Source: Gemmatimonadota bacterium
Lineage (GTDB): Bacteria > Gemmatimonadota > Gemmatimonadetes > Longimicrobiales > Gaopeijiaceae
Reading direction: 5' to 3'
DNA: 64,000 nt
Assembly (NCBI GenBank): GCA_022823145.1
Contig: JAJDXS010000031.1
Coordinates: forward strand, 62,001-126,000
Shown here: positions 39,606 through 49,020 of the stretch, piece by piece
Layout of the letters: every line of letters begins with the position of its first letter
Position numbering within the stretch: position 1 is the stretch's first letter
The notes under the pieces: model-generated
The model's database searches: none
What the model saw: the letters and a program-made list of their open reading frames with translations, nothing else
What the model was told of the DNA's origin: nothing
Program-made: the position numbers and the translations under genes

Positions 39606-40124
39606 TCACCGTCCCCGCTCAAGCACCATGTCCCCGATTACGTGCGTCGCGTGCTCCCACGCGTCGAGTGGCGCCGCCCAGGTGCGGTCGCGGATTCGCC
39701 GCAGGTAGGTCATCTGGGCCAGGTGATAGAGATAGTGCTGGGCGATGTGCACCACATCCACCCCCAGCCGGGCACCGATCTTGCCGTCGAGCGAGGTCCG
39801 CTCGGCCATGAGATCCGCGTCGCTCTCACACCCCTCAACCTCCGCCAGAATCTGCTTCTGGATCGTGCGCATCCGCCCGGCGACCTCGTCGACCGGCCCC
39901 GGGGCGTCGTGGCTGATCACGGGCTCAATCCCCAGCCGCTTCAGGAACCAGACGTCGACGCGGTACATGTGACGGCACATCTTGCCGATTCCGCGCGATC
40001 CCGGCGCCGGGTTCCAGTCGAAGTCCTCCTGCGCGATTCCGTCGAGCACCATGAACAGCGGCTTGCGCGCCGCCTCGAAGATCTCGAGGGTGCGGGCGAT
40101 TCGGGTGCGGTCGGTGTTGCTCAT
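39606..40124 (-). CDS. DinB superfamily protein
   Basis: A 172-residue four-helix protein with the DinB/YfiT metal triad: His in CRHMYRVDVWFLK and two in VVHIAQHYLYHLAQMTYLRR. Members include thiol-dependent transferases such as those using bacillithiol or mycothiol; the substrate is unknown. It lies 8 bases after a small protein gene in the same minus-strand group as the PQQ-M28 fusion. Confidence 0.85.
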   Translation of the reverse strand: MSNTDRTRIARTLEIFEAARKPLFMVLDGIAQEDFDWNPAPGSRGIGKMCRHMYRVDVWFLKRLGIEPVISHDAPGPVDEVAGRMRTIQKQILAEVEGCESDADLMAERTSLDGKIGARLGVDVVHIAQHYLYHLAQMTYLRRIRDRTWAAPLDAWEHATHVIGDMVLERGR

Positions 40125-40132
40125 GCGTGTCC

Positions 40133-40450
40133 TCAGAGTCCGTGCGCGTGCTTGAGACGCTCCACCGTCTCGTCGAAGGTGTGCACCGGCACGATCCGGA
40201 GCATGTTGAAGGAAGCGAGGCCCGTATCGACCGCGAATCTCTCGATCTCGGTGGGATCGTCCGCTTCGACGATCCAGAGAAACGTGTGTTCCAGCGCCGA
40301 GTGGTACCGGGGCCCGATCCGGCGGATGCCGTATTCCGTGGCGAGTCGGGCGGGGTCGAGCCCGGCGACGTCCACAAAGACCTGGGCGTACTTCGCCAGG
40401 TAGATCGGACAGGTCTCGGGGGTGTGACTGCCGTAGATTCCGAATTGCAT
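40133..40450 (-). CDS. Small conserved-looking protein, unknown function
   Basis: A 105-residue protein with a ferredoxin-like alpha/beta pattern (MQFGIYGSHTPETCPIYLA, EHTFLWIVEADDPTEIERFA, MLRIVPVHTFDETVERLKH), resembling small dimeric alpha-beta-barrel or DUF3303-like proteins. No active-site motif is clear. It starts 5 bases after the PQQ-M28 stop, so it belongs to that operon. Confidence 0.65.
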   Translation of the reverse strand: MQFGIYGSHTPETCPIYLAKYAQVFVDVAGLDPARLATEYGIRRIGPRYHSALEHTFLWIVEADDPTEIERFAVDTGLASFNMLRIVPVHTFDETVERLKHAHGL

Positions 40451-40455
40451 TGATG

Positions 40456-43400
40456 TCAGGGCCGGTGTTCCTTTCGCGGCACCTTCACGTCGTCCATCGC
40501 CGCGTTGTAGACGAACGACGCCACAATGACGGCGTTCTTGACAAGGTCGTCAATGGGCAGGGTGTCATAGAAGTCGAGGTTGGTGTGCCCGCCCGTGCCC
40601 CCCACGCGCGCCTGCAGGAACTGGAAGCCCGGCAAGCCTGCGCGATCGAAGGGAATGTGGTCCGTCGAGCCGACGCTGCGTGGTGAAATCGTGGTCATGC
40701 CGAGGTCGCGCAGGGGCTCCATCCAGGATGCGAACAGCGAGCGAGCGTGCTCGTTGCCCTGCAGCCAGATCCCGCGGTACTGGCCGGGGCCGTAGTCCTG
40801 GTTGAAGTAGACGGAGAAGTCGTCGTACGCGGGCGTGGTGCCGGGGGGGCCGCCAGGCCCGTCGGCGCCGCCGGGCCCCACTTCGCCGCCCGGGCTGCCG
40901 AAGTGCTTCACCACATACGCCGTCGACCCGAAGATGCCTTGCTCCTCGCCCGACCAGAGCGCGATGCGGACCGTGCGGCGGGGCCGGGCACCGACCGCCT
41001 TCAGGATGCGCATCGCTTCCAGCATCACGGCCGTGCCCGAGGTGTTGTCGCTGGCGTTCGGGCTGGCGTGCCAGGTGTCGAAGTGCGCGCCCAGCATGAC
41101 GACTTCGTGGGCGAGGTCGGTGCCGGGGATCTCGCCGAGCACGTTGGTGGCCTCGCGGGCACCGGCGCCGTGCACGTTGCGCACCTCGGCCTCGACGGTG
41201 ACGGGGATGCCGCGTCTCAGGATCCTGTACATGCGGTTGTAGTGCTCGGGCGTGACCGCGACGATCGGGACCGACGACAGTGTGGCGTCCCGGTCCCAGC
41301 GGTCGACCTTCGCTCCCGGCCGCGCGAACCCGCGCACCGCCCCGGGCCAGCCGCTGTTGGATTCGAGGACCAGCGCGACCCCTTCCTCCACGTAGAACGC
41401 CAGCCGTTCGGCGGCGGTGAGCACTTGCGGGTTCGCCGGCGGGCGGGGACCGGTCGGCGGCGGGATCACGTCCTCTTCGAGCGCGCGCATTTCGGCGTCG
41501 GTGCGGCGGGGTGTGCCGGTGGCGAAGCGCTCCAGGTTGATGACCGGCGGCGGCGTCGACATGACCGCGAGGCCGCGCAGCCTGCCGCGCAGCGGCTCCA
41601 GCTGATCGCGGGTGCGGACGTCGGCGAGCACCACGTCCAGACGCTGCTTCCCGTCCGTCCCCGGCGTGTGCGCGATCGGGTAGGCGACCAGGGGCTGGTA
41701 GTCCGGCGCCATCATGTGGACCGAGACGTATTCGTTGTCCCAGCTCGCGCCGTAGTTCATGAAGGGCTCGCGGTGGGCGTTCTCGAGGCCGATTCGCCGC
41801 ATCTCGTCCAGCGCCCACTCCTGCGCCCGGTCCATCGCGGCCGAGTTGGTGAGCCGGGCGCCGACGACGTCTGTCATGTAGGACAGGGTGTTCGGAAGCT
41901 GGGAGCGCTGCAGCCCCTCCTCGCGGATCCTGGCCAGCATGGCGAGGTCCACGGGACGGTGGGCGGGCTCCGTGCCACCGGCCTCCGCCCCCTGCCCGCC
42001 GCCCGCCCCGCCCCCGCCGGCCTCCGGCAGCCCGAACACGAACATCGTCCCACCCGCCGAGTTCACGATCCGCTGCTGCCCGTCGATCTCGTAGGACATC
42101 GGCCCGCTCCGCACCGCCGCGCCCGCCTGGAAGTTCCAGAGCGGCTCCCCGGTCTCGGCATTCAGCGCGAAGATGTTCCCCTCGTCGCTACCGCCGAACA
42201 CGAGGTTGCCGGCCGTCGCCATCACGCCCGCCCATGGGGGCGACTGCAGCGGAAACTCCCATACCAGCTCGCCGGTGAGCACGTCCAGCGCCTTCACCGC
42301 ACCGCTCGCCTCCTCGCCGCGCAGCGCCTGTTCGCCGCCGCCCATGAACGGCTGGCCGGGCTCGTACTCGACCTCGGCCTTGTAGTAGATCGCGCCCATG
42401 ATCCGCGTCGGCTGGTAGAACAGACGCGTCATCGGGCTGTAGCTGGGGCTGAACCAGTTGGCCGCGCCCTGCAGACTGGGCCAGACCAGGACGCCCTCCT
42501 CGGTCGGATCGGTGCCGGGGATCACGATCGGCCGGCCGTTCTCGTCCAGTCCCTCGGCCCAGGTCTGTTTGGAGTACTCCGCACCGTGCAGGAATTCGCC
42601 GGTTTCGCGGTCCAGAACGTAGTAGAACGCATTTCGGTTGGCTGTGACGACGAGCTTGCGGGACTCGCCTTCCCACTCGGCGTCGACCAGCACCTGGATC
42701 TGGTTGGCGTCCCAGTCGTGGGTGTCGTGGGGCGTGAACTGGAACCACCACACGATCTCGCCCGTGTCGGGATCGAGCGCGAGCAGGCAGTCCGTGTAGA
42801 GGTTGTCGCCGGGGCGCAGATCGCCGTTCCAGTCGGGGGCCGGGTTGCCGATCGGCCAGTAGAGCAGGTCGAGCTCCGGGTCGTACGAGCCGGTCAGCCA
42901 CGTCGAGCCGCCGCCCGTCTCCCAGCTGTTGCCGCCCCAGGTGTCGCTGCCGAACTCGCCGGGCGCCGGAATGGTGTACGTGCGCCAGACCAGCTCGCCG
43001 GTCTCGGGGTGGTACGCGTCGATGAAGCCGCGCACGCCCGCCTCGGCGCCCGACACGCCGACGATGATCTTCCCGTCGAGCGCCAGCGGGGCCAGCGTGA
43101 GCGCGAAGCCGATCGCGTTGTCGGCGACTTCGACGTCCCACCGCACCGCCCCCGACCGTGCGTCGAGCGCGACCAGGTGCGCGTCGAGCGTCCCCACGTA
43201 GACCGTAGAGTCCAGTACCGCCACGCCCCGGTTCACCTCCGGGAAACCGATGTGGAGGACGTCCGACCCCATCTGCGGCGTCCACTTCCACAGGCGCTTG
43301 CCGGTGCGCGCGTCCAGCGCGGTCACCGTGCTCGGCGGCTCGGTCACGTACATGACCCCGTCCGCCACGATCGGTGTCGTCTCGATCAGCCCCTCGTCCA

Positions 43401-43656
43401 TCTGGTACGCCCACACCACGCGCAGATCCGCCACGTTGCCCGCTTTGATCTGGTCCAGCTGCGAGAAGCGGTGCGACGCGTAGTTGCCCGAGTAGGTGAG
43501 CCAGCTTTCCGGCTCGGAGTCGGCCGCGAGGATGCGCTCGTAGGGGACCTGCGCGGTGGCCGGTTGGGCCATTGTAATGCCCAATGCGAAGGCCGCCCAC
43601 AGGGCCATTGCAACGCCCGGCGCTGCCGCGGCCGCCGTGCGACTCCACTTGTTCAC
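40456..43656 (-). CDS. Fusion of PQQ-dependent dehydrogenase and M28 zinc aminopeptidase
   Basis: One uninterrupted 1066-residue frame. A signal peptide ends near PATAQ36. Residues 38-543 form a quinoprotein propeller of the alcohol/glucose dehydrogenase type: WLTYSGNYASHRFSQLDQI, GGGSTWLTGSYDPELDLLYW, catalytic Asp in THDWDANQ (314-316) and WAGVMATAGNLVFGGSDEGN. A Gly/Glu linker (545-562) leads to a PA-like insert and M28 peptidase (570-1066). The peptidase has zinc ligands and catalytic residues in AHFDTW (858-860), ASDNTSG (Asp870), GEEQG (Glu904/905), NQDYG (Asp953) and STDHIPF (His1000). Both halves look intact. It is coupled to the upstream diheme cytochrome, a likely electron acceptor. 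Acting on a peptide and oxidising a product of it is an inference. Confidence 0.9.
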   Translation of the reverse strand: MNKWSRTAAAAAPGVAMALWAAFALGITMAQPATAQVPYERILAADSEPESWLTYSGNYASHRFSQLDQIKAGNVADLRVVWAYQMDEGLIETTPIVADGVMYVTEPPSTVTALDARTGKRLWKWTPQMGSDVLHIGFPEVNRGVAVLDSTVYVGTLDAHLVALDARSGAVRWDVEVADNAIGFALTLAPLALDGKIIVGVSGAEAGVRGFIDAYHPETGELVWRTYTIPAPGEFGSDTWGGNSWETGGGSTWLTGSYDPELDLLYWPIGNPAPDWNGDLRPGDNLYTDCLLALDPDTGEIVWWFQFTPHDTHDWDANQIQVLVDAEWEGESRKLVVTANRNAFYYVLDRETGEFLHGAEYSKQTWAEGLDENGRPIVIPGTDPTEEGVLVWPSLQGAANWFSPSYSPMTRLFYQPTRIMGAIYYKAEVEYEPGQPFMGGGEQALRGEEASGAVKALDVLTGELVWEFPLQSPPWAGVMATAGNLVFGGSDEGNIFALNAETGEPLWNFQAGAAVRSGPMSYEIDGQQRIVNSAGGTMFVFGLPEAGGGGAGGGQGAEAGGTEPAHRPVDLAMLARIREEGLQRSQLPNTLSYMTDVVGARLTNSAAMDRAQEWALDEMRRIGLENAHREPFMNYGASWDNEYVSVHMMAPDYQPLVAYPIAHTPGTDGKQRLDVVLADVRTRDQLEPLRGRLRGLAVMSTPPPVINLERFATGTPRRTDAEMRALEEDVIPPPTGPRPPANPQVLTAAERLAFYVEEGVALVLESNSGWPGAVRGFARPGAKVDRWDRDATLSSVPIVAVTPEHYNRMYRILRRGIPVTVEAEVRNVHGAGAREATNVLGEIPGTDLAHEVVMLGAHFDTWHASPNASDNTSGTAVMLEAMRILKAVGARPRRTVRIALWSGEEQGIFGSTAYVVKHFGSPGGEVGPGGADGPGGPPGTTPAYDDFSVYFNQDYGPGQYRGIWLQGNEHARSLFASWMEPLRDLGMTTISPRSVGSTDHIPFDRAGLPGFQFLQARVGGTGGHTNLDFYDTLPIDDLVKNAVIVASFVYNAAMDDVKVPRKEHRP

Positions 43657-44513
43657 GATTCCCTCCCGAGGGTCGTCAGGTACGCCACCAGGTCCTCGAT
43701 GTCGTCTTCGCCCAGGTCCTGTGCCACCGGCATCAGCGAGTGGCCTACGCGTTTCTCCATCTCGGCGACGTCACTCTTGCGCAGCGAGACGAAGGTGCCG
43801 GAAACCGTCATCAGCTGGATGGTGAACGCGTCCTCGTTCATCCGCATGCCGTTGTAGATGTCGCCGTCGTGCGTGACGATCCGCACCGGCAGATACTCGA
43901 AGAATCCGCTCCGCGAACCGGCTCGCGCGACGGGCAGCCGGGCGGCGGGCGCCCGCAGGGATTCGCGCAGGTAGTCGGCACCGCGGCGAAGCCCGATGAT
44001 CGTGAGTTCCGGCCCGACGGCCGTGCCGCGCCCGGCGACGATGTGACAGGAGGCGCAGTCGCCCGCGGCCCAGAAGAGATCGTGGCCCCGCTCGGCGTCG
44101 CCGGTGACCGCCGAAGCGCCGGCGGTGGCCTGCACACCGAGCCACAGCACGTAACCGGCCACCAGCGACACCGCGTCGTCGTCGAGGACCGTGGTGCTCG
44201 CGCCGGGCATGCCGGTGCCGTCGATCCCGTCGCGGATGATCTGCTCGAGCTGCGCCCGGTCCGCGACCCTGGGCAGCGCGAGCTGGGCCAGTTCGGGGCC
44301 TTCGCCACCCAGCCCCTGAACGCCGTGACAGCGCGCGCAGTGGGCACGGAACAGGCGCTCGGCGCGCTCGGAATCCTCCAGTGCGATGACTTCTGCGCCG
44401 GGCTCCTGCGCCGTGACGGGAATGGCGGGTCCGGTGAGTGTGGCGAGCAGCAGCGGGAGGGTCGGTGGCGGTGCCCGCAGGGGCAGCGGCCAGGTGGCCT
44501 TCAGGGTGCGCAA
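43653..44513 (-). CDS. Diheme cytochrome c, partner of the PQQ dehydrogenase
   Basis: A 286-residue exported protein (signal ending near PAIPVTAQ) with two CxxCH heme sites, CARCHG and CASCHI. The second is followed by a heme-binding segment AVGPELTIIGLRRGADYLRE and a small beta domain. The TTG at 44513 is chosen because GGAGGG lies five bases upstream; longer frames have no ribosome binding site. Its stop overlaps the ATG of the PQQ-M28 gene (ATGA). It likely takes electrons from PQQ. Confidence 0.88.
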   Translation of the reverse strand: MRTLKATWPLPLRAPPPTLPLLLATLTGPAIPVTAQEPGAEVIALEDSERAERLFRAHCARCHGVQGLGGEGPELAQLALPRVADRAQLEQIIRDGIDGTGMPGASTTVLDDDAVSLVAGYVLWLGVQATAGASAVTGDAERGHDLFWAAGDCASCHIVAGRGTAVGPELTIIGLRRGADYLRESLRAPAARLPVARAGSRSGFFEYLPVRIVTHDGDIYNGMRMNEDAFTIQLMTVSGTFVSLRKSDVAEMEKRVGHSLMPVAQDLGEDDIEDLVAYLTTLGRES

Positions 44514-44634: not shown

Positions 44635-45585
44635 CTACCCAGGTCTGCCCAGCGGTCTCCCGTCCAGCCCCCAGGCCGGGTCGATCTCGAAGCCGAGGTG
44701 TTCGAGCGCGGTGGCGGCGATGTCGACAATGTACGCGGGCCCCGGGGGCGGCCAGTCGCGGGTGGTGGCGCCTGCGCCGCCGGCCCCCAGTCCGCTCGCC
44801 AGGATGAAGATCGTCATCTCTTCGGGCGTGTCCCCGCCGTGGCCGCCGTCCTCGCGCCGGCCGTGGTCCGTGCTGATGAGCACCAGCCACTCCTCGTTCG
44901 CGAAGCCGGGCCGGGCGCGCACCGCGTCGATCAGCATGCCGACGTGCTCGTCGGAGAGCGCGATCGCGTCCCGGTACTCGACGCCGATCGAGCCGTGCCG
45001 GTGGCTGGTCTCGTCGGGATTGCCGAGGTAGACGAACATGGCGTCGGGGTCGGCTTCGCCCAGGTGACGCACGGCGCTGGCGGTGACCATGCCGTCGGCC
45101 TCGGCCCAGCCGTGATCGTAGCCGTCGAAGATGGCGCGCTCGTCGACGGTCGCCGGGACCACGGGGCCGCCTTCGGGGAGCTCCGCGAGCGGAAGCCAGT
45201 CCAGTGCGGCAAAGGTGGAGAGCTCGGGGCGCTCCCGTTCCACGCGGGTGAGGAAGCCGGGCCAGGTGGCGTAGTCGCGGCCGGCGAAGGTGTTGTCCGT
45301 GACGCCGTGCTTCTCGGGCCAGACACCGGTCAGCATCGAGGACCACGAGGGGCCGCTGACGGAGGGGGTGGTGGTGCGGGCCTCCGCCGTGTACCAGCCG
45401 CTTGCCGCCAGCGCGTCCATGTTGGGTGTGGCGACCTCGGCGAGTACGTCCGGGCGCACGCCGTCGATGCCGATCAGGAGAACCTTGGGGCTGGGCTGCG
45501 CACCCGAATCCAGGCAGGCGATCCATGCGGCGCAGGCGAGTGCCGCGACGACGACCGCGACCGCCCGGCCTGCCGCACCCCTCAT
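44635..45585 (-). CDS. Exported type I phosphodiesterase/alkaline phosphatase family protein
   Basis: A 316-residue protein with an N-terminal hydrophobic signal or anchor (AVAVVVAALACAAWIAC). Metal-site motifs of the superfamily follow: LIGIDGVRPDVL, the nucleophile Thr region RTTTPSVSGPSWSSMLTG, DETSHRHG and STDHGRREDGGHGGDT. It hydrolyses phosphate mono- or diesters of an unknown substrate outside the cytoplasm. It is the last gene of the ArsR-SRPBCC operon; its start overlaps the SRPBCC stop. Confidence 0.85.
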   Translation of the reverse strand: MRGAAGRAVAVVVAALACAAWIACLDSGAQPSPKVLLIGIDGVRPDVLAEVATPNMDALAASGWYTAEARTTTPSVSGPSWSSMLTGVWPEKHGVTDNTFAGRDYATWPGFLTRVERERPELSTFAALDWLPLAELPEGGPVVPATVDERAIFDGYDHGWAEADGMVTASAVRHLGEADPDAMFVYLGNPDETSHRHGSIGVEYRDAIALSDEHVGMLIDAVRARPGFANEEWLVLISTDHGRREDGGHGGDTPEEMTIFILASGLGAGGAGATTRDWPPPGPAYIVDIAATALEHLGFEIDPAWGLDGRPLGRPG

Positions 45586-46422: not shown

Positions 46423-46442
46423 ACTAAACATAATTGTTTAGT
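46423..46442. promoter_or_regulatory. Predicted ArsR operator (inverted repeat)
   Basis: A perfect inverted repeat ACTAAACA-TAAT-TGTTTAGT lies 41 bases before the ArsR start and 100 bases before the divergent TonB-receptor gene. AT-rich dyads of this size between divergent genes are usual ArsR sites. It may also affect the receptor gene. Confidence 0.7.
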
Positions 46443-46542
46443 GTCGTGGTGGCCACGCTGCTCCGCGTCCAACCCGGCGGACCTCCTAACAATCGGAAAC
46501 CGGACACTGTCCCACCGACGGACCTCAGACCGGAGAGTGCCG

Positions 46543-49020
46543 ATGCACCCAAGTAGCCGTCCCAACCGACCATTCCTTCGTCTTTCCGTTTTCTTCCTGT
46601 TCGCCTCGCAGATCGTCCCCCTGTCCGCGCTTCGGGCCCAGGACACCCGTACCATCCAGGGCGTCGTCCGCGATTCCGTCAACGGCGAGGCCATCGTGCA
46701 CGCCGCCATCGCGATCGCCGGTACCGAGCGCCAGGTCAACACGAACGCCGACGGCTTCTTCGCCGTCGTGGGCGCCCCCCTCGAGACCTTCAGCCTCCGC
46801 ATCGTCCACATCGGCTACACGCCCACCGAAGTGATCGTGGACGCCGGCTTCGGCGGACGGCTCAGCATCGAGATCCCTCCGCTGCCCATGGAGCTGGAGG
46901 GAGTCGAGTTCGTAGCTGACGAGTACCGCCTGGTGAAGGCCACGGACGGCGTCAGCCGCGTCTCGGCTTCGCCTGCGGAGATGGCCGTGCTCCCATCCGT
47001 CGGGGAGGTCGACGTGTTCCGGTCGCTACAGCTCCTGCCCGGGATCAGCGGCACCCGGGAGTCCTCTTCCGGGCTCTACGTCCGGGGCGGCACCCCCGAC
47101 CAGAACCTCGTGCTGCTCGACGGTATCACCGTATACCACGTCGACCATTTCTTTGGCTTCTTCAGTGCCTTCAACGCCGAGGCGATCAAGGACATCCAGG
47201 TCTTCAAGGGTGCATTCCCCGCCCAGTACGGCGGGCGCGTTTCCAGCGTCGTCGACATGACCGGAAAGACCGGCGACCCCGAACAGATGCACTACGGCGG
47301 CGGGCTCAACCTGCTGAGCGCCAGCGGCACCTTCCAGACGCCGATCGGTTCCAGCGCCAACCTGCTGGTGACCGGGCGCCGCTCCTATACCGATGTCGTC
47401 CGCACCGGCCTGTACAGCAGCATCTTCGACGTCTTCAACATCGGCACCGGCCCGCAGGCGCCCGCAGGCGGGGGACCCGGAGGGGGACGCGGATTCGGCG
47501 GCCCCGGCGGGCTGTTCGGTTCCGCGAACCAGGATGTCGCGACGCCGGATTTCCACTTCTACGACTTCAACGCGAAGCTGACCTGGCTGCCGGGAGACCG
47601 GGACGTCGTCGCGCTCAGCCTCTACGGAGGACGCGACTACCTGGACAAGTCGCAGGAGCGGTCCCTGTCGTTCACGCCCAGGGGCACGGCCGGCACGCGC
47701 AACTTCACTACCGCCGTCGGCGATCTGACCGATTGGGGGAACCGGGGCCTGTCGGGGCGCTGGGGCCGGCAGTGGGAGAGCGGGCTGACCAGCAACGTGC
47801 TCGCCGCCTACTCCGAGTACACGTCGGACTATGGACGCAACACCCAGGTCACGATCCTGGATCCCGAGACCTCCCAGACCGACCTCACCCGCGACCTACG
47901 CTCCAGCGAGGACAACTTCCTCACCGACCTGAACCTGCGCGCCGACAACGCGTGGCGGCTCTCGCCGAATCACAGCCTCGACTTCGGCGCCTGGCTCAGC
48001 GCGACCGGCGCCGAGTACCGCTACGTGAGGAACGACAGCACCACGATCCTGGACCAGTCGCAGTCGTCGACGCGGCTGGCGGCCTACGCACAGGACACCT
48101 GGGACGTCACGGACCGCTTCTCCGTCATGGCGGGAGGGCGCGTCTCCTACGACCAGGCCACCGCGAGGAGTTACCTGGAGCCCCGCGCGTCGGCGCGCCT
48201 GGCCCTGACCGACCGGATCACGCTCAAGGCGGCGGCCGGGCGGTACCACCAGTTCGTGAACCGGGTCGTCAACGAGAACGTCACCGAGGGCTCGCGCGAC
48301 TTCTGGCTGCTGGCCGATGGCGATCTGGTCGACGTGACCGCTTCGGACCACCTGGTTGCGGGCGTGTCGTACGAGACCGACGGCTACCTCTTCGATGTGG
48401 AGGTGTACCGCAAGGAGACCACGGGGCTGTCGGAGTTCTCGCTGAGATTCCGTCGCAACGACATCGACCCGCTCAACCTCTTCTACGCGGGGACGGGGAC
48501 GGCGCAGGGCGCGGAGTTCCTGGCCCAGAAGAAGTTCGGCGCCTTCACCGGCTGGCTGTCCTACACGCTGGCCGAGGCGCGCAACACGTTCCCGGAGTTG
48601 AACGACGGACATTCGTTCCCGGCTCTTCACGACCAGCTTCACGAACTCAAGGCCGTCGGAACGATGTCGCTCGGGCGCTGGGACCTGGCGTCCACCTGGA
48701 CGTACGGATCGGGCACCCCCTACACGGCCCCGCAGGCCGAATACAGCGTCGAACTGCTGGACGGAAACGCCTTCAGCTACATCAACGTGAGCGCGAAGAA
48801 CGGCCTGCGGCTGCCGGCCTATCACCGGCTGGATCTGAGCGCGCGCTACGGGTTCTCGCTCGGCGACTACGGTGGCGACGTGGGCCTGTCGGTGTTCAAC
48901 GCCTACGACCGCGCCAACGTCTGGTACCGCCAGTTCGAACTGGACGCGACGCCGGCGATCGTCACCGATGTCAACTATGTCGGACGGGTCCTCAATCTCT
49001 CCGTCCGCTTCAATCGATAG
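46543..49020 (+). CDS. TonB-dependent outer-membrane receptor with carboxypeptidase-regulatory-like domain
   Basis: The 825-residue protein has a signal peptide (LFASQIVPLSALRAQ). A carboxypeptidase-regulatory-like domain (RTIQGVVRDSVNGEAIVHAA, residues about 35-115) and a plug follow (about 130-240, SSGLYVRGGTPDQNLVLLDG, GAFPAQYGGRVSSVVDMTGK). The barrel ends in NLSVRFNR. A Gly/Pro-rich loop (PAGGGPGGGRGFGGPGG) is inserted near residue 310, probably on the outside. The architecture is SusC-like, but a DUF4249 lipoprotein rather than SusD follows. Substrate unknown. GGAGAG precedes the ATG. Confidence 0.92.
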   Translation: MHPSSRPNRPFLRLSVFFLFASQIVPLSALRAQDTRTIQGVVRDSVNGEAIVHAAIAIAGTERQVNTNADGFFAVVGAPLETFSLRIVHIGYTPTEVIVDAGFGGRLSIEIPPLPMELEGVEFVADEYRLVKATDGVSRVSASPAEMAVLPSVGEVDVFRSLQLLPGISGTRESSSGLYVRGGTPDQNLVLLDGITVYHVDHFFGFFSAFNAEAIKDIQVFKGAFPAQYGGRVSSVVDMTGKTGDPEQMHYGGGLNLLSASGTFQTPIGSSANLLVTGRRSYTDVVRTGLYSSIFDVFNIGTGPQAPAGGGPGGGRGFGGPGGLFGSANQDVATPDFHFYDFNAKLTWLPGDRDVVALSLYGGRDYLDKSQERSLSFTPRGTAGTRNFTTAVGDLTDWGNRGLSGRWGRQWESGLTSNVLAAYSEYTSDYGRNTQVTILDPETSQTDLTRDLRSSEDNFLTDLNLRADNAWRLSPNHSLDFGAWLSATGAEYRYVRNDSTTILDQSQSSTRLAAYAQDTWDVTDRFSVMAGGRVSYDQATARSYLEPRASARLALTDRITLKAAAGRYHQFVNRVVNENVTEGSRDFWLLADGDLVDVTASDHLVAGVSYETDGYLFDVEVYRKETTGLSEFSLRFRRNDIDPLNLFYAGTGTAQGAEFLAQKKFGAFTGWLSYTLAEARNTFPELNDGHSFPALHDQLHELKAVGTMSLGRWDLASTWTYGSGTPYTAPQAEYSVELLDGNAFSYINVSAKNGLRLPAYHRLDLSARYGFSLGDYGGDVGLSVFNAYDRANVWYRQFELDATPAIVTDVNYVGRVLNLSVRFNR

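What the first reader, a model, noticed from the sequence alone, without database searches (positions are those of the whole stretch)
40456..44513. PQQ dehydrogenase fused to M28 aminopeptidase, coupled to a diheme cytochrome c
One 1066-residue frame joins a complete quinoprotein propeller (catalytic DWD, Trp-rich propeller motifs) to a complete M28 peptidase with all metal ligands, through a Gly/Glu linker. The upstream diheme cytochrome overlaps it by ATGA. I know the two families as separate proteins; a single exported protein that could hydrolyse a peptide or amide and oxidise a product with PQQ, passing electrons to the cytochrome, would be a new arrangement.
Basis: partly seen in the sequence, partly recalled or inferred. 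Interest (0 to 1): 0.7.

Follow-up and report, generated by a model that had tools for sequence, protein, structure and literature searches.

The report
Quinoprotein dehydrogenase fused to M28 peptidase
In one genus of uncultured Gemmatimonadota an exported alcohol-dehydrogenase-like protein and an exported peptidase, separate genes in sister bacteria, are really joined into one protein; the joined form comes and goes between close relatives, and nothing yet shows that the two halves work on the same substrate.

Summary
ORF 40456-43656(-) is one 1066-residue frame: leader, quinoprotein propeller (TIGR03075 over cut-off), Gly-rich linker, complete M28 peptidase. The same unbroken frame occurs in 6 of 23 genomes of the genus, one a single contig; no other was found among 395 Gemmatimonadota genomes. 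Both halves are under purifying selection (dN/dS 0.045-0.080 and 0.075-0.166).

In 10 of 11 sister-genus genomes the halves lie on different contigs. In 4 of 23 genus genomes the dehydrogenase stands without M28; a single fused clade is rejected (p-AU 5e-5). One fusion with repeated loss, or exchange, of the M28 half fits best. The genus lacks PqqC and PqqE over cut-off but has a PqqU-like importer (23 of 23), so PQQ would be scavenged. The propeller has the lanthanide-type D-x-D but not the usual Cys pair.

The only other alcohol-type quinoprotein among six scanned is fused to a serine esterase/beta-lactamase-fold domain in 20 of 23 genomes. Most likely: two independent exported enzymes on one chain. 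Coupled catalysis is unsupported.

The parts
43653..44513 (-). Diheme cytochrome c (286 aa from the TTG start; CARCH at residue 59, CASCH at 153); presumed electron acceptor
   Evidence: start codon uncertain
40456..43656 (-). Whole fusion gene, 1066 aa, GTG start, GTGA overlap with the cytochrome
43549..43656 (-). Signal peptide, about residues 1-36 (hydrophobic stretch, then ATAQ-V)
   Evidence: sequence reading; hydropathy maximum at residue 15; no signal-peptide predictor was available
42028..43548 (-). Quinoprotein alcohol-dehydrogenase propeller, residues 37-543; D314-W-D316 (lanthanide-type D-x-D), E205, W253, N271, R341 aligned with the PQQ/metal site; G137-F138 where the aligned solved homologues have Cys-Cys
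41962..42027 (-). Gly-rich linker, residues 544-565; differs in length and sequence between the fused genomes
   Evidence: pLDDT under 50 for 547-564 (a poor model)
40459..41961 (-). M28 metallopeptidase half, residues 566-1066; H858, D870, E904, E905, D999, H1024 invariant in 40 of 40 aligned rows, D860 in at least 90%
40133..40450 (-). 105-aa conserved protein, no Pfam family; by inference part of the locus before the block came in
39606..40124 (-). DinB-superfamily protein; directly follows the dehydrogenase gene (ATGA overlap) in the M28-less genomes G017 and G022
44635..45582 (-). Type I phosphodiesterase/nucleotide pyrophosphatase-like protein (PF01663); upstream border of the cytochrome-dehydrogenase-M28 block

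Best explanation
It is a lineage-specific fusion of two ordinary exported enzymes. An alcohol-type quinoprotein dehydrogenase gene, overlapping its diheme cytochrome c gene, has no stop at its end and runs in frame through a Gly-rich linker into an M28 metallopeptidase that lacks a signal peptide of its own. The protein is exported once and folds as two separately working domains. The propeller, loaded with imported PQQ and probably a lanthanide, oxidises an unknown alcohol or aldehyde and passes electrons to the cytochrome. The M28 half, an aminopeptidase/dipeptidase-like two-metal enzyme, cuts small peptides on its own. The gain is joint expression, export and location, not a shared reaction. 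Shown: architecture, recurrence, selection on both halves, patchy history, PqqC and PqqE not found, importer homologue. Inferred: export, co-transcription, cofactor loading, metal, substrates, independence of the two sites.
Against: The missing Cys pair and a near-equal score against TIGR04528, a subfamily named 'acido-empty-quinoprotein' (534 against 544 bits), leave PQQ binding in doubt. That the genome's other TIGR03075-level quinoprotein is also fused to a hydrolase hints that pairing a dehydrogenase with a hydrolase may be selected, which favours the coupled rival. No expression, proteomic or activity data exist here. The full-length model is poor (mean pLDDT 62.1, pTM 0.44), so domain geometry is unknown.
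Confidence: 0.6

Rival explanations
1. Coupled bifunctional enzyme: the M28 half hydrolyses a peptide or amide and the product, for instance an amino alcohol or aldehyde, is oxidised by the tethered quinoprotein, electrons going to the cytochrome.
For: Real fusion with purifying selection on both halves. Of six propeller genes of the genome that I scanned, only two reach the TIGR03075 cut-off and both carry a C-terminal hydrolase; the other four do not. In the second one the hydrolase domain's best NCBIfam hit is methyl acetate hydrolase AcmB, 211 bits, far under its cut-off of 550; an esterase that frees an alcohol next to an alcohol dehydrogenase would make sense.
Against: The dehydrogenase is kept without M28 in 4 of 23 genus genomes, and in 10 of 11 sister-genus genomes the genes are on different contigs. 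M28 relatives are widespread as stand-alone genes; of 80 loci kept only the genus's own carry both halves in one gene. M28 products are amino acids or peptides, not typical substrates of this dehydrogenase family (general knowledge).
Confidence: 0.15
2. The propeller is an empty quinoprotein: it keeps the fold but binds no PQQ and is not a dehydrogenase; it may serve as a binding or scaffold module for the peptidase or the cytochrome.
For: No PqqC and no over-cut-off PqqE in 23 of 23 genomes; no Cys-Cys in 17 of 17 aligned propeller rows; 534 bits against TIGR04528; an Ala where 6zcv/6zcw have the Trp of a Gly-Trp-Gly near the end of the propeller.
Against: E205, W253, N271, D314, D316 and R341 are kept in 17 of 17 rows; TIGR04528 cut-off of 650 not reached, TIGR03075 cut-off reached; a cytochrome homologue adjacent in 12 of 12 close orthologues; PqqU-like importer in 23 of 23; PQQ scavenging by non-producers is documented, with PqqU reported in Gemmatimonadetes (PMC12124388, abstract and passages).
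Confidence: 0.2
3. Neutral by-product: the stop codon was lost by chance when the genes came together, and the fusion itself brings no gain; the domains are simply tolerated as one chain.
For: Patchy presence and repeated loss or exchange; linker variable in length and letters; the same M28 is fused to a different partner in G057.
Against: Both halves stay under purifying selection over synonymous divergence of 0.16-0.62, though that shows selection on the domains, not on their junction; a second quinoprotein-hydrolase fusion is kept in 20 of 23 genomes.
Confidence: 0.3
4. Assembly or frame error at the linker.
For: GC-rich low-complexity linker; in G015 two contigs end there.
Against: Same frame in 6 separate assemblies, one a single 4.09-Mb contig, with different linker lengths, each without a stop.
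Confidence: 0.01

Closest known systems
PQQ-dependent alcohol dehydrogenases, methanol/ethanol family (TIGR03075); nearest solved: PDB 6zcv/6zcw (quinoprotein ethanol dehydrogenase), 1kv9, 1yiq, XoxF 6dam
   Same: Propeller by sequence, metal/PQQ site residues, D-x-D as in XoxF 6dam and in 6zcv, adjacent c-type cytochrome
   Different: No vicinal Cys pair; C-terminal M28 domain; PqqC and PqqE not found in the genus
Stand-alone M28 family peptidases; nearest solved: PDB 3iib (Shewanella amazonensis peptidase M28), also B. subtilis BSAP 6hc6
   Different: No signal peptide of its own; tethered behind a dehydrogenase
Multi-domain quinoproteins: quinohemoprotein alcohol dehydrogenases (PDB 1kb0, 1kv9, 1yiq; propeller plus cytochrome c, recalled) and fungal PQQ pyranose dehydrogenase (cytochrome b - PQQ domain - CBM1; PMC6472588, passages)
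   Same: A propeller fused to another module in one chain
   Different: There the partner is an electron carrier or a binding module; here it is a second enzyme, a hydrolase
The genome's own second fusion P0003 (G000 contig C41, 185052-187910, minus)
   Same: Alcohol-type quinoprotein (TIGR03075 549.7 bits) with a C-terminal hydrolase domain in one frame; in 9 of 11 sister-genus genomes both halves are found, on different contigs
   Different: Partner is PF00144 (serine beta-lactamase/esterase fold); has the Cys pair; lacks the second Asp of D-x-D (my reading); near-universal in the genus (20 of 23) and not patchy

Membership tests
PQQ-dependent dehydrogenase, methanol/ethanol family (TIGR03075) | Curated score cut-off (480 bits) | tested here: met
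   544.3 bits, residues 34-532
PQQ-dependent dehydrogenase, methanol/ethanol family (TIGR03075) | Metal/PQQ site residues (Glu, Asn, catalytic Asp, Arg, stacking Trp; roles recalled) | tested here: met
   E205, N271, D314, R341, W253 aligned with 6zcv and 6dam (1kv9 has Lys at R341); kept in 17 of 17 rows
PQQ-dependent dehydrogenase, methanol/ethanol family (TIGR03075) | Vicinal Cys-Cys disulphide at the PQQ site (recalled as typical of the alcohol type) | tested here: not met
   G137-F138 in place of Cys-Cys in the alignments; 0 of 17 propeller rows have it
PQQ-dependent dehydrogenase, methanol/ethanol family (TIGR03075) | Binds PQQ and oxidises alcohols | not testable with these tools
   needs protein
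Lanthanide-type quinoprotein | Second Asp two residues after the catalytic Asp (D-x-D) | tested here: met
   D314-W-D316, 17 of 17 rows; motif as given in PMC11996626 (passages); metal itself not tested
Acido-empty-quinoprotein group A (TIGR04528) | Curated score cut-off (650 bits) | tested here: not met
   533.9 bits; orthologues L022 548.6 and L091 547.9
Peptidase family M28 (PF04389) | Curated score cut-off (21.3 bits) | tested here: met
   96.7 bits, residues 838-1048
Peptidase family M28 (PF04389) | Two-metal ligand set and catalytic Asp/Glu (roles recalled) | tested here: met
   H858, D870, E904, E905, D999, H1024 invariant in 40 of 40 rows; D860 in at least 90%
Peptidase family M28 (PF04389) | Fold of a solved member | tested here: met
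Diheme cytochrome c | Two CxxCH motifs | tested here: met
   residues 59 and 153 of P0002

The most novel reading that the evidence does not exclude
This genus builds exported dehydrogenase-hydrolase tandem enzymes on a scavenged cofactor: both of its alcohol-type quinoproteins (the two of six scanned propeller genes that reach the TIGR03075 cut-off) carry a C-terminal hydrolase, an M28 peptidase here and a serine esterase-fold domain in P0003, that frees the alcohol or aldehyde which the tethered propeller oxidises, so that breakdown and electron delivery happen at one place outside the cytoplasm.
Probability: 0.15. Interest if true: 0.7.

Novelty: new variant of a known kind. Interest (0 to 1): 0.45.

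Why it matters
Fusions of quinoproteins known to me join them to electron carriers or binding modules; a fusion to a hydrolytic enzyme is a different idea, and this genus has two. The close relatives give a natural experiment: near-identical dehydrogenases with and without the peptidase, and the peptidase with another partner. That makes it directly testable whether gene fusion here means coupled chemistry or just joint export. It also adds a lineage whose quinoproteins, if they use PQQ, most likely live on imported PQQ.

Tried and rejected
Rejected: assembly error (six separate assemblies). Rejected for the loci seen: fusion of two genes that are neighbours elsewhere. In L105 and L107-L110 an M28 relative and a PQQ protein of 28-29% identity lie about 1.5 kb apart; in L108, the one read gene by gene, another gene lies between on the other strand. 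That propeller is not the orthologue. Rejected: a close stand-alone M28 inside the M28-less genus genomes; at E up to 1e-25 they have none closer than 39%.

Inconclusive: the full-length structure (mean pLDDT 62) says nothing about how the halves sit. The direction of change (one fusion plus losses, against spread of the M28 half by recombination) is not settled; G012, fused, branches first in the protein tree (96/90) but the DNA tree leaves that fork open. The rpoB tree lacks G000 and G018, where no rpoB was found. In one search none of the tool's 14 control genomes held PqqC either, so the absence rests on the positive genomes. In one search 21 of 23 genus genomes had weak PqqE-model matches (20-74 bits, partial), which I read as other radical-SAM proteins, as in all 14 control genomes.

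Literature: no paper in the held library has all of the terms 'M28', 'PQQ', 'Gemmatimonadota', 'PF01011' with 'PF04389', 'quinoprotein' with 'fusion protein' and 'peptidase domain', or 'empty quinoprotein'; 'PQQ-dependent dehydrogenase' with 'domain fusion' gave one review about cytochrome fusions. Passages were read in PMC11996626, PMC12124388 and PMC6472588, and a term search of PMC10469786 found nothing; the other papers were seen as search listings only. This library lacks most subscription journals, so absence there is weak. What TIGR04528 stands for beyond its name is not taken from any call.
Full report
WHAT IS THERE. It holds, in order, a signal-peptide-like leader, an alcohol-type quinoprotein propeller (PF01011 274.9 bits, TIGR03075 544.3 bits against a cut-off of 480), a Gly-rich linker (544-565) and an M28 peptidase (PF04389 96.7 bits). 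The cytochrome has two CxxCH motifs.

IT IS REAL. The window lies in a 4.49-Mb, 83-contig genome, 92.8% complete. The genus group held here has 23 genomes. The frame is unbroken in 6 of 23: G000, G012, G013, G023, G026 and G032, the last a single contig of 4,091,820 bases. In G015 the propeller runs off one contig end and the M28 starts at another contig's start, so it is probably a seventh. In a phylum sample of 395 genomes, with the two best candidates of each scored and matches listed to E 1e-120, no further fused frame appeared.

SELECTION. Over all 15 pairs of the 6 fused genes dN/dS is 0.045-0.080 for the propeller and 0.075-0.166 for the M28 half. Neither half is decaying.

THE PROPELLER. 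E205, W253, N271, D314 and R341 align with the metal/PQQ site of 6zcv and 6dam (1kv9 has Lys at R341), and the second Asp of the lanthanide-type D-x-D (D316) is present in 17 of 17 propeller rows (motif in PMC11996626). Against this, the Cys-Cys pair of the aligned solved homologues is G137-F138 here and absent from 17 of 17 rows, and the score against TIGR04528, named acido-empty-quinoprotein, is nearly as high (533.9 bits, under its cut-off of 650). PqqC gave no match in 23 of 23 genus genomes, while the same model was over its cut-off in 34 of 298 phylum genomes. PqqE was over cut-off in 0 of 23 genus genomes, 21 of which had weak partial matches of 20-74 bits; of the three PqqC-bearing controls in that call two were over the cut-off and one (G048) was not. 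A homologue of E. coli PqqU was found in 23 of 23, in two pieces in G016 (30-37% identity; own genome E 8e-64). PMC12124388 reports PqqU in Gemmatimonadetes and finds that only 23% of bacteria with PqqU also encode PQQ synthesis (passages). So PQQ, if used, is most likely imported. That the homologue carries PQQ is inferred.

HISTORY. In the sister genus (11 genomes) 10 of 11 carry a propeller of 82-85% identity and an M28 of 76-81% on different contigs; for the eleventh (G004, 67% complete) one weaker match was counted but its row was not listed. In the window's genus 4 of 23 (G016, G017, G022, G029) have the dehydrogenase without M28 and without an orthologous M28 elsewhere, and 12 of 23 have neither orthologue. 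Six of those 12 were examined and in 6 of 6 the phosphodiesterase-like gene, the 105-aa gene and the DinB gene are contiguous: the empty site. In G017 and G022 the dehydrogenase stop overlaps the DinB start as ATGA. The M28-less genes end in Gly-rich tails of different length (G017, G022, G029, G016), unlike the sister-genus genes read, which end at the propeller, and G114, of another genus, shows a Gly-rich stretch in frame after its stop. In G016 the cytochrome-dehydrogenase pair lies on the other side of the phosphodiesterase-like gene. A DNA tree of the propeller rejects one fused clade (p-AU 5.4e-5) and one M28-less clade (p-AU 8.3e-11); G022 (without) pairs with G023 (97/98), and G017 (without) with G015 (98/98). 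In the rpoB tree G022 pairs with G023 too (100/100), but G017 pairs with G026 (99/95) and G114 lies outside the genus, so the locus itself has also moved between strains. Fused M28 halves form one clade (100/99) that also holds the M28 of G057. I read this as one fusion followed by repeated loss, or exchange between strains, of the M28 half. In G057 the same M28 follows the phosphodiesterase-like protein in one 840-aa frame with no dehydrogenase between; its phosphodiesterase part groups with four genomes of the window's genus (99/97), so a transfer with an internal deletion is likely, although that row is on a long branch.

A SECOND FUSION. The next best quinoprotein of the genome, P0003 (953 aa), is also one frame: TIGR03075 549.7 bits plus PF00144 225.6 bits at 588-933. 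It matches full length without a stop in 20 of 23 genus genomes, in G057 and once in G010 (a sister-genus genome, 96% identical there); of the other three, G024 has no match and G027 and G030 match over the hydrolase half only (E up to 1e-100). In 9 of 11 sister-genus genomes both halves are found, on different contigs; G001 and G004 show only the propeller half. Four further propeller genes of the genome (L003, L005-L007) are under the TIGR03075 cut-off, score best against the glucose type TIGR03074 (also under its cut-off) and carry no other Pfam domain; a seventh, weaker hit on contig C2 was not scanned.

MECHANISM. Two exported enzymes on one flexible chain is the least that the evidence needs. 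Coupling is not excluded, and P0003 makes it more thinkable; but retention of the dehydrogenase without its peptidase in near relatives, and the peptidase's wide life as a single gene, speak against a shared reaction.

NOVELTY. Both families are known; I found no report of the combination in the searches listed under Tried and rejected. I call it a new variant of a known kind.

Noticed in passing
G000 contig C41:185052-187910(-) (locus L002; outside the window): Second alcohol-type quinoprotein of the genome fused in frame to a C-terminal PF00144 serine beta-lactamase/esterase-fold domain; full length in 20 of 23 genus genomes, halves on different contigs in 9 of 11 sister-genus genomes.
   Followed up: partly
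L206 359-2881(-) (G057): Single 840-aa frame of phosphodiesterase-like protein plus M28, the same M28 clade with another partner.
   Followed up: partly
window 46441-49020(+): TonB-dependent receptor divergent from this locus; an orthologue lies beside the cytochrome-dehydrogenase block in 7 of 11 other block-bearing genomes whose stretches were fetched, and none was hit in the stretches from 6 genomes without the block. In NCBIfam it has only weak hits to receptor families and none to PqqU.
   Followed up: partly
L241 (G010 C63:4838-7708): A sister-genus genome holds a 96% identical copy of P0003 besides its own separate halves: recent transfer or a contaminating contig.
   Followed up: no
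L068, between the dehydrogenase and the 105-aa gene (G029): About 600 bases of unrelated DNA follow the M28-less dehydrogenase; the opposite strand reads like a small MerC-type membrane protein (my reading, no search).
   Followed up: no
window 40133-40450(-): 105-aa protein without any Pfam family, found at 69-79% identity in the fetched stretches of 12 of 16 other genus genomes, in one of them only in part; not hit in those of G013, G015, G017 and G022.
   Followed up: no
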